Below the pieces are notes generated by a model. That model made no database searches, was not told where the DNA came from, and was given only the letters and a program-made list of their open reading frames with translations. 64,000 nucleotides of DNA. It comes from Sordaria brevicollis (lineage: Eukaryota > Ascomycota > Sordariomycetes > Sordariales > Sordariaceae). Where the stretch lies: the NCBI GenBank assembly GCA_033439795.1, contig JAUTDP010000003.1, positions 2,728,001 through 2,792,000 of the forward strand, read 5' to 3'. Every line of letters begins with the position of its first letter. The first letter of the stretch is position 1. Of the stretch, positions 2 through 3,710 are shown piece by piece. The position numbers were made by a program, and so were the translations under genes.

Positions 2-698
2 CACACTGTTGCCAGGAGGATAGCAACTGCTCCATCCGTCGCTCCAGTCTCCAAAACGCAATGGCACACAAGACGATCAGCGCAACCCACCAGCCAGTCG
101 AGCCAGCGTCTGCGTCTCTTCACGACATCGGCTCCGCGCAAGGCAACACACACGTTGTTCAATCCCCAAAATGACGAGGATGGAAACGAGATGGTGCTGG
201 AAATCACAGAGCGGGCGGCGAAGGTACGTTTTGTCCTAGAGGCGGATTACGCCAGTGACGGGAAACACCACCTAACTAAAAATGTGTTTGCCTGCGCAAC
301 AGCGTCTCTCAGAAATCATGACCAAAGACTCCAACCCTTACCTCGCGCTGCGCATCCAAGTTGAATCTGGCGGCTGCCACGGTTTTCAATATCTCATGAA
401 GCTGGTCACCCTCCCGTCGCAACTTCCCGAACTGCCCGTCTCCGAGGAGGCCGCTGAGGGATCAGAGATCCGCGAAGACGACACGATATTCACGTATTAC
501 CCTGATGGCGGCCCAGCGCCGTCATCTTCCGATCTGACGGTACCCAAGATTATTCTGGATGGGCCGTCGCTGGAGCTGCTTAAGGGTAGCAAGGTGGACT
601 TCACCATGGAGTTGATCGGTTCCCAGTTCAAGATCGTGGACAACCCGTTAGCTACCAGCAGCTGCGGCTGTGGTACGAGCTTCGATATCAAGGTCTGA
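2..698 (+). CDS. ISA2: ISA2-like mitochondrial A-type Fe-S assembly protein, 5' partial
   Basis: Two exons, <2..223 and 303..698, around a 79-nt intron (GTACGT donor, CTAACT branch point, CAACAG acceptor). Splicing joins ITERAAK to RLSEIMTK and rebuilds the start of the HesB/IscA domain. The reading frame is open to the left edge with no in-frame ATG, so the start codon lies outside the window. The first ~60 visible residues are basic and rich in Ser/Thr, ending RLRLFTTSAPRKA, as expected for a mitochondrial presequence. Three conserved cysteines are present: one in ESGGCHGF and the CGC pair in SSCGCGTSF near the C-terminus. Family knowledge: Isa2 acts with Isa1 and Iba57 in the matrix to make [4Fe-4S] clusters for aconitase-like enzymes and for biotin and lipoate synthases. 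The motif spacing and short acidic insertion fit Isa2 better than Isa1, but that split is my judgement. Confidence 0.88.
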
Positions 699-1094: not shown

Positions 1095-2565
1095 TTAGTT
1101 CATCTGGCGGATGAGAGCGTTAATGTGCTCCTCGCGGTTGCCGAGGTCACCACCCTCAATGAAGTGCTTGAACTTGCGGGTGCGGAAGCCACCAGTGGGG
1201 TTGGAGAGCTTGAAGGGCCAGAGGAAGTTGGAGGCCTGCTTGAAGTTGGGGCCGACGGTGTAGATCTCGTGGATGAGATCCTCCATGCAGATGATGCCGT
1301 ACTTGCCGAGGTTCTCCTCAATGATGGAGTTGTCGGTGAGGGCAACGCGCTGCTTGTTGACCTTGCCGTATCCGCGCTTGTAGATGAGCTCCTTGACGGA
1401 CTTGAGGTTGGGGTAGCCGTAGGCAACCCAGGGCTCGACGATCTTGATCATCTCAGCGGTAGCCTTGGTAACGCGGACGAAGACACCGTTGTTGATCTGG
1501 AGAAGACGGAGGAGCTGGAGGATCTTGCGGGGCTTGGGGGGGATCTTGTTGATACCCTTGATGCGGATCAAGAAGATGAGCTTGGCCTCAGCGGGGATGT
1601 GGAAAGAGCCATCCTGCTTGGCGGCGCGGGCAAGGCGGACCTTCTCGCGCTCGACGTCGCGGTACTCCTTGACGTAGGTCTCGGCGCGCTTGAAGATGAC
1701 GCCACGCTTCTCCTTGTTGGCCTATTTGATACAGTCAGCAACGTGTCCAGAACGCTAGAAGGCAGTTCAAATAGTGCATTGATGAGGTGTGTTGTCAGAC
1801 CCGAAAGATGGTTAATTTAGCAACAGCATCGGCGAACCTAGTCGCTAGGGTATGTTGTGCATCATGATGACCTCTGGAATAGGGGAAGCTCGATCGACGG
1901 TAATACTCACAGCCTTCTTCTTCTCGATCTCGGCCTGGCGCTCAGCGCGGGCCTTCTCCTGAGACTTGCGCTTCTTCAGGAGGGTCTCAGGGACCAGGAC
2001 ATCGTTCTTGGTGGGGACGGAACTAAACATATCAGATTAGTACGAGGTCCAGCATACCAGAGGTATGTGGTAGAGCGCCGGTGGAGAACTGCTGCTCAAG
2101 TGCGGCATTCTCTCGTGGCTGACTCGATTGATAGCTTGGTGTAGCTTGGAGAGATACGCTCAGCATTTTCAGCGTGAGGATCACACAGCCAGGCACGACC
2201 GGGACAGCAAGTGCCCGAAAATGTGGGCAAGCTGTGAAGGAGAAAGCAAAGACTCGAGATTTTACACTCGCGTCCATGTTTTCCTGTCGCAGCTGCGATG
2301 GATTTAAGGGAGAAGGCCAGAGACCTTCAACCCCAACACCCCACGAGACATCTCTCAGTCTGCAAGCCCTGGTCGGTCCAAGGCCTGGAGGAAAGAGGGA
2401 GAATCATGAGAGGGATCGAGCTGGGGCGATGGCTGCTCTGCGAGAAGACAGGCCAAAGACACCCAGTGAGAGGACCACGACTATCCGCAGATTGTTCCTG
2501 GAACACGCGACGATACCATTCCTCTGGCGTCAAGGGGAAGGATCGGGGTTGGCATACGTAGACAT
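1095..2565 (-). CDS. RPL7: 60S ribosomal protein L7 (uL30)
   Basis: Three exons: 2565..2558, 2022..1911 and 1721..1095, giving 248 aa (yeast L7 is 244). Exon 1 is only 8 nt (ATGTCTAC) before a GTATGC donor. It is supported because exon 2 is preceded by a TACTAAT branch point and TTTAG, and because joining gives [20 protein letters not shown], a typical fungal L7 start. Intron 1 is 535 nt and intron 2 is 189 nt with a C/D snoRNA inside. The protein has the basic N-terminal helix (residues 20-60), then the L30 fold with [33 protein letters not shown], the [16 protein letters not shown] segment and the C-terminal [18 protein letters not shown]. It is a structural protein of the large subunit. 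It shares a 336-bp divergent promoter with RPS14. An alternative start at 2030 would skip exon 1, but the ATG there lies inside the likely acceptor. Confidence 0.95.
1784..1874 (-). ncRNA. box C/D snoRNA in RPL7 intron 2, predicted guide for 25S 2'-O-methylation
   Basis: Inside the 189-nt intron, on the sense strand of RPL7. A box C-like ATGATGC (1865..1859; last base differs from RTGATGA) and a box D CTGA (1798..1795) are flanked by a possible 5-bp stem, GAGGT (1874..1870) with ACCTC (1788..1784). Immediately upstream of box D the RNA reads ACCATCTTTCGGGT, complementary to the conserved large-subunit rRNA stretch ACCCGAAAGATGGT. By the D+5 rule the target is the G of ACCCG, which I equate with yeast 25S Gm805 (snR39b). 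From memory, yeast RPL7A and RPL7B introns carry snR39 and snR59 for the neighbouring Am807, so position and target region are both conserved. The box D', box C' and second guide are unclear. Confidence 0.8.

Positions 2566-2901: not shown

Positions 2902-3710
<809 letters not shown>

What the first reader, a model, noticed from the sequence alone, without database searches (positions are those of the whole stretch)
1722..1910. RPL7 intron 2 hosts a C/D snoRNA for a conserved 25S rRNA site
The sequence next to box D is complementary over 14 bases to the large-subunit rRNA stretch ACCCGAAAGATGGT. By the D+5 rule it targets the G of ACCCG (yeast Gm805 as I recall it). Yeast RPL7A/RPL7B introns host snR39/snR59 for Am807, two bases away. 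So the host gene is conserved while the predicted methylation site differs by two bases, which would be a shift of guide specificity inside a conserved locus. Box C has one non-consensus base.
Basis: partly seen in the sequence, partly recalled or inferred. Interest (0 to 1): 0.75.

Follow-up and report, generated by a model that had tools for sequence, protein, structure and literature searches.

The report
Methylation-guide snoRNA in RPL7 intron
An intron of the ribosomal protein gene RPL7 in a Sordaria fungus carries what looks like an ordinary small guide RNA that directs one methyl group onto the large ribosomal RNA; the host intron, the RNA family and the predicted site were already described in related fungi, so the gene is probably real but not surprising.

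Summary
Intron 2 of RPL7 (1910..1722, minus strand) in Sordaria brevicollis contains a box C/D snoRNA-like sequence. Box D is CTGA (1798-1795). The 14 nt before it are perfectly complementary to 28S ACCCGAAAGATGGT, and D+5 points to the G, equivalent to yeast Gm805. The guide-plus-D pattern occurs once in the 53 Mb assembly, here. Two Rfam snoRNA models align over it on the right strand, both below cut-off.

The 'shift of guide specificity' is not supported. A Gm805-type intronic guide is already listed for the close relative Neurospora crassa (CD47, Gm785), and C/D snoRNAs in the conserved RPL7 intron are reported across fungi. Rfam's snR39 consensus has the same guide-to-box-D spacing as this RNA, so the two-base difference rests on the published A807 label of yeast snR39/snR59; I could not read the yeast sequences themselves.

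Left open: who guides A807 here. Among the perfect 10-11 nt matches that I examined, none has a canonical CTGA in the A807 register; a degenerate or mismatched guide would have escaped. Verdict: probably a real gene, new member of a known family, low interest.

The parts
1095..2565 (-). RPL7 (uL30) host gene: exon 1 2565-2558, intron 1 2557-2023, exon 2 2022-1911, intron 2 1910-1722, exon 3 1721-1095; 248 aa
1722..1910 (-). RPL7 intron 2, 189 nt, GTGAGT...TAG, phase 0, host of the snoRNA
   Evidence: intron position conserved in fungi per PMC8476143
1793..1867 (-). inferred mature C/D snoRNA, about 75 nt; ends not known
   Evidence: inference from boxes and the 75-nt length of N. crassa CD47
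1859..1865 (-). box C ATGATGC (6/7; last base off consensus); overlapping alternative ATCATGA 1868-1862
   Evidence: the Tetrahymena TtnuCD19 consensus has the same AUGAUGC
1799..1812 (-). guide ACCATCTTTCGGGT, 14 of 14 pairs with LSU ACCCGAAAGATGGT; D+5 is C1803 opposite the G
   Evidence: LSU stretch
1795..1798 (-). box D CTGA
1870..1874 (-). 5' arm GAGGT of a possible 5-bp external stem
   Evidence: (duplex -7.5 kcal/mol); no control was run
1784..1788 (-). 3' arm ACCTC of the possible external stem
1734..1738 (-). branch-site-like CTGAC upstream of the 3' splice site
   Evidence: the branch-site consensus is recalled

Best explanation
It is an intron-encoded box C/D snoRNA of the kind that fungal RPL7 genes carry in this intron, most probably the orthologue of Neurospora crassa CD47. 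After splicing and debranching of RPL7 intron 2 the RNA is trimmed to about 75 nt and binds the standard C/D proteins; its 14-nt guide pairs with 28S ACCCGAAAGATGGT and directs 2'-O-methylation of the G (yeast Gm805 equivalent). Shown here: host gene, intron, boxes, perfect pairing, uniqueness in the assembly, alignment to Rfam snoRNA models. Inferred: expression, trimming, protein binding, methylation, and identity with CD47.
For: Guide abutting CTGA with 14/14 pairing. One genome-wide occurrence of the pattern, 0 of the reversed control. Rfam snR39 (21.5 bits) and TtnuCD19 (24.0 bits) align over guide and box D on the right strand; the only RF01197 match in the genome is here. Location in the RPL7 intron whose position is kept in 82% of fungi and which holds C/D snoRNAs in the species shown there (passages of PMC8476143). 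N. crassa CD47: intronic, 75 nt, chromosome III, box D guide for 26S Gm785, labelled homologue of snR39b (Table 1 of PMC2780460); N. crassa RPL7 is 99% identical and its longest contig is 5,274,802 bases, which I recall as chromosome III. 45 nt from the 5' splice site to box C, in the 41-60 nt range given as typical for N. crassa.
Against: Both Rfam scores are far below gathering (21.5 of 40, 24.0 of 70), and RF01197 gives sub-cut-off matches in 8 of 14 control genomes too. A 6/7 box C is common in shuffles. No expression or methylation data. The text I read does not name the CD47 host gene, and its table footnote says asterisked genes such as CD47 were annotated but not detected experimentally, although the row itself lists N and R. 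snR39/snR59 orthologues were not found in three Candida-clade species by another group (PMC5033589), so the gene is not universal in fungi.
Confidence: 0.9

Rival explanations
1. Guide-specificity shift: the ancestral RPL7-intron snoRNA directed Am807, as yeast snR39/snR59 are said to do, and the Sordariales copy moved by two bases to Gm805.
For: Catalogue labels: yeast snR39/snR59 Am807, snR39b Gm805. No entry for the A807-equivalent site in the N. crassa table, and no good A807-register guide among those examined in this genome.
Against: The Rfam snR39 consensus has the same one-base spacer before box D and by D+5 also points at G805. Without the yeast sequences no direction of change can be claimed, and N. 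crassa already has the Gm805-type RNA.
Confidence: 0.15
2. Dual guide: the single RNA serves both G805 and A807, the second by a relaxed register or another box.
For: Only one good guide to this stretch was found. One guide element serving two sites two bases apart is predicted for N. crassa CD27 (Table 1 and Results of PMC2780460).
Against: No box-D-like sequence stands two bases upstream of CTGA here (the four bases would be GTCT), so D+5 on A807 is not provided by this anatomy (sequence).
Confidence: 0.06
3. Chance complementarity in an intron, with no RNA made.
For: Rfam scores are sub-threshold; box C is weak by itself; no expression data.
Against: The pattern is found once in 53 Mb with 0 reversed controls, and it falls in the very intron reported to hold such RNAs in other fungi.
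Confidence: 0.03

Closest known systems
Neurospora crassa CD47 (26S Gm785), PMC2780460 Table 1
   Same: Intronic box C/D RNA, box D guide, same site (numbers in that table run 20 below yeast, e.g. Am797 for Am817), about the same length, sister genus
   Different: Pairing given as 16/0 against 14 here; host gene not named in the text read; its sequence not seen
Yeast snR39/snR59 (RPL7A/RPL7B intron 2), Rfam RF01197
   Same: Same host gene and second intron, same guide, same spacing to box D in the Rfam consensus
   Different: Published target label Am807; this RNA scores 21.5 against a gathering score of 40
Yeast snR39b / vertebrate SNORD2, Rfam RF01299
   Same: Same predicted site Gm805/Gm1509; consensus CAUCUUUCGGG-A-CUGA
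   Different: That element lies early in the 69-position SNORD2 model (D' side, recalled); chicken copy hosted by EIF4A2; the RF01299 model does not report the window locus in this genome
Tetrahymena TtnuCD19, Rfam RF02295
   Same: Box C AUGAUGC, guide ACCAUCUUUCGGG, one spacer base, CUGA
   Different: Middle part unlike; 24.0 of 70 bits; very distant organism

Membership tests
Box C/D snoRNA | Box D CUGA near the 3' end | tested here: met
   CTGA 1798-1795
Box C/D snoRNA | Box C RUGAUGA near the 5' end | tested here: inconclusive
   6/7 match, two overlapping candidates; 662 of 5000 shuffles reach 6/7
Box C/D snoRNA | Guide of 10-21 nt just upstream of box D or D', complementary to rRNA | tested here: met
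   14 of 14 pairs; length range as stated in PMC2780460
Box C/D snoRNA | Terminal or external stem bringing C and D together | tested here: inconclusive
   5 bp GAGGT/ACCTC at a distance from both boxes, no control run
Box C/D snoRNA | Stable small RNA bound by C/D core proteins | not testable with these tools
   no RNA data
RPL7-intron snoRNA lineage (snR39/snR59-like, RF01197) | Location in the conserved RPL7 intron | tested here: met
   second intron of RPL7; yeast snoRNAs are in the second intron. Exact equivalence of the junction is from recall
RPL7-intron snoRNA lineage (snR39/snR59-like, RF01197) | Rfam RF01197 gathering score of 40 bits | tested here: not met
   21.5 bits; so I do not file it as an RF01197 member by score
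Gm805 guides (snR39b, SNORD2, CD47) | D+5 opposite G805 with perfect guide | tested here: met
   C1803 opposite the G
Gm805 guides (snR39b, SNORD2, CD47) | Sequence match to RF01299 (SNORD2) | tested here: not met
   window locus not reported; the one match elsewhere lacks an intact guide
Am807 guides (U32/U51; snR39/snR59 by label) | Box D placed so that D+5 is A807 | tested here: not met
   box D is two bases too far downstream for A807

The most novel reading that the evidence does not exclude
Within one orthologous, seldom-lost intron the guide register differs by two bases between lineages (Gm805 in Sordariales, Am807 in budding yeast), and the Sordariales lack a separate Am807 guide, so that the rRNA methylation pattern changed by moving box D rather than the antisense element.
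Probability: 0.15. Interest if true: 0.45.

Novelty: new member of a known kind. Interest (0 to 1): 0.17.

Why it matters
It places one snoRNA gene in a fungal window where a standard Rfam scan at gathering thresholds finds nothing. It also leaves a checkable loose end: by the D+5 rule Rfam's snR39 consensus points at G805, while yeast snR39/snR59 are catalogued as Am807 guides, and no guide for the A807-equivalent site is listed for N. crassa or was found here among the near-perfect guides examined.

Tried and rejected
Other guides for the same rRNA stretch in this genome. Read: 13 of 13 hits of CATCTTTCGGN{0,5}TGA (12 sites, two overlap; 6 hits for the reversed control), 10 of 10 hits of CCATCTTTCGN{0,4}TGA (4 control hits), and 30 of 31 hits of ACCATCTTTCG (32 control hits; one hit had no locus; identical sites merged). 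CTGA in the G805 register occurs at the window site and at C27:940146 only. I rejected the C27 site: box C 5/7, and its CTGA lies in a hairpin GCCTGA...TCAGGC (by eye). CTGA in the A807 register: none. Three of four letters in that register: L032 and L033 (ATGA), L050 (TTGA), L056 (CCGA), L077 (CTGT), with box C at 5, 4, 5, 4 and 5 of 7. Rfam at E<=1 found nothing in the 10 loci given to it (L032 and L033 were not among them). D' guides with mismatches were not searched.

RF01299 has one weak match elsewhere (C22, 20.7 bits of 37, no intact guide), and gives matches in 12 of 14 control genomes: noise. RF01197 does so in 8 of 14: its score alone proves little.

Relatives in other collections: 1 pattern hit in viral contigs and 18 in genome contigs; tblastn of RPL7 against these 19 loci gave nothing better than E=1, so they were dropped as chance. 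RPL7 in viral contigs: no relative. Folding the whole intron was uninformative. A second guide at D' was not assessed for want of the species' rRNA.

Literature: 9 searches were answered. A search for antisense-probe letters, to learn the yeast spacing, gave one paper on mammalian snoRNAs (listing only). 'The fungal snoRNAome' (Canzler et al. 2018) is not held. Of a paper on snoRNAs that modify multiple sites, a term search found none of my terms.

Full report
What the window is. The window lies in a 53 Mb assembly at C21:2728001-2792000. Its RPL7 protein is identical to one named Sordaria brevicollis whose contig is 4,355,803 bases long (P0001), the length of C21, so I take the species to be S. 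brevicollis. The N. crassa RPL7 is 99% identical (P0006).

The host gene. On the minus strand three exons (2565-2558, 2022-1911, 1721-1095) join to a 248-aa uL30/RPL7. Intron 2 is 1910..1722, GTGAGT...TAG, phase 0 between EKKKA and ANKEKR, with a branch-site-like CTGAC at 1738-1734. By recall, yeast RPL7A intron 2 interrupts the equivalent junction. A published survey, of which I saw passages, says that the RPL7 intron position is kept in 82% of fungi and that the introns of eight intron-poor species, Sporothrix schenckii among them, encode box C/D snoRNAs (PMC8476143). Against universality: another group found no snR39 or snR59 orthologue in three Candida-clade species (passage of PMC5033589).

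The RNA. Box D CTGA is at 1798-1795. The 14 bases before it pair without mismatch with ACCCGAAAGATGGT (duplex -24.6 kcal/mol). That rRNA stretch stands in the Rfam eukaryotic LSU consensus and in a 28S-derived fragment of this genome (C1:1065063; LSU match 35.6 bits, gathering 50). I did not find the complete rDNA: an 18S start lies near the end of contig C18 and another in C23, and none of the six other rDNA landmarks that I tried lies in the stretches fetched around them. Counting from box D, +5 is C1803, opposite the G of ACCCG, yeast G805. Box C is ATGATGC at 1865-1859 or the overlapping ATCATGA at 1868-1862. I prefer the first because the Tetrahymena family TtnuCD19 has the same AUGAUGC, and because, as I recall the C/D kink-turn, bases 3 to 6 of box C pair with box D and the last does not. 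The C-to-D span is then 71 nt. A 5-bp GAGGT/ACCTC pairing could close the ends (no control).

Is it more than chance? ACCATCTTTCGGN{0,4}CTGA is found once on both strands of the genome, here; the reversed control is not found. A 6/7 box C at a suitable distance is common (662 of 5000 shuffles), so the weight lies on guide, box D and location. The whole intron folds worse than most shuffles (197 of 200 fold at least as well). In Rfam nothing reaches gathering in the window; at relaxed thresholds snR39 RF01197 (21.5 bits) and TtnuCD19 (24.0 bits) align over it on the right strand. RF01197's only reported match in the genome is this one, but the same model gives sub-cut-off matches in 8 of 14 control genomes.

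Comparison with what is known. In yeast, snR39 and snR59 sit in the second introns of RPL7A and RPL7B and are listed as guides for A807 (passages of PMC5295604, and PMC2806949); snR39b is listed for Gm805 (table passage of PMC5199042). The two sites and their separate guides are also listed for chicken, human and plant (table passage of PMC2653536) and for Entamoeba and others (table passage of PMC3542256). In N. crassa, Table 1 of PMC2780460 (I read its sections 3, 4 and 8) lists CD47: 75 nt, chromosome III, intronic, box D guide, 26S Gm785, homologue of snR39b. Numbers in that table run 20 below yeast (Am797 and Gm888 for the snR60 homologue, against Am817 and Gm908), so Gm785 is Gm805. The CD47 row says northern and reverse transcription, but the footnote says that asterisked genes were annotated and not detected by experiment; I cannot resolve that. 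The N. crassa RPL7 protein has a longest contig of 5,274,802 bases, which I recall as chromosome III. CD47 is therefore most probably the N. crassa copy of this RNA, but its host gene is not named in the text that I read. In Fusarium graminearum the level of an intronic SnR39 falls when the debranching enzyme gene is deleted (passages of PMC9606315; host not named there).

The claimed shift. The Rfam snR39 consensus reads ACCAUCUUUCGGGGCUGA and aligns to this RNA without a gap from guide through box D. The one-base spacer is the same as in SNORD2 (UUUCGGGACUGA) and TtnuCD19. By D+5 the snR39 model also points at G805. Hoeppner and Poole list SnR39/59 as RF01197 with the A site and SnR39B as RF01299 with the G site (table passage of PMC3511168; their yeast numbers are 2 lower). 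Either individual yeast sequences differ from the consensus, or the A807 label does not follow from D+5. I could not read a yeast sequence, so a shift is not shown, and the only sequence evidence at hand makes it less likely.

What about A807 here? Of the guide-like matches that I read (13 of 13, 10 of 10 and 30 of 31 hits of three patterns), none has CTGA in the A807 register; five have three of its four letters there, with box C at 4 or 5 of 7. The N. crassa table has no entry at the equivalent A787. This is suggestive only: the N. crassa list is called not exhaustive by its authors (abstract), and D' guides with mismatches would escape these patterns.

Verdict. It is most probably a snoRNA gene of a known kind, in a known host intron, with a predicted target already listed for a sister genus. 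The evolutionary twist is unproven.

Noticed in passing
Rfam RF01197 consensus as printed: By D+5 the snR39 consensus (UUUCGGGG-CUGA) points at G805, although snR39/snR59 are catalogued as Am807 guides; either single yeast sequences differ from the consensus or the label does not follow from the rule.
   Followed up: partly
window about 1847-1836 (-), aligned to RF01197: The inner stretch AGCGACUAG resembles AGUGACUAG of the snR39 consensus, so something beyond the main guide may be kept (a D' element?).
   Followed up: no
window 2565 (-) and 2902-3710 (+): RPL7 is head to head with another ribosomal protein-like gene ([28 protein letters not shown]..., RPS14/uS11 by recall), start codons about 340 bases apart.
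   Followed up: no
L001 (G000:C1:1065063): A degenerate 28S-derived fragment of roughly 150 bases outside any rDNA array keeps the target stretch intact; complete rDNA was not found in the stretches fetched.
   Followed up: partly
L034/L053 (G000:C27:940146-940162, minus strand): A second CCATCTTTCGGG-C-CTGA in the G805 register, with a poor box C and its CTGA inside a small hairpin; probably chance.
   Followed up: partly
window 282-698 (+): A reading frame ending SCGCGTSFDIKV looks like an iron-sulphur assembly (HesB/IscA-like) protein; label recalled, not tested.
   Followed up: no
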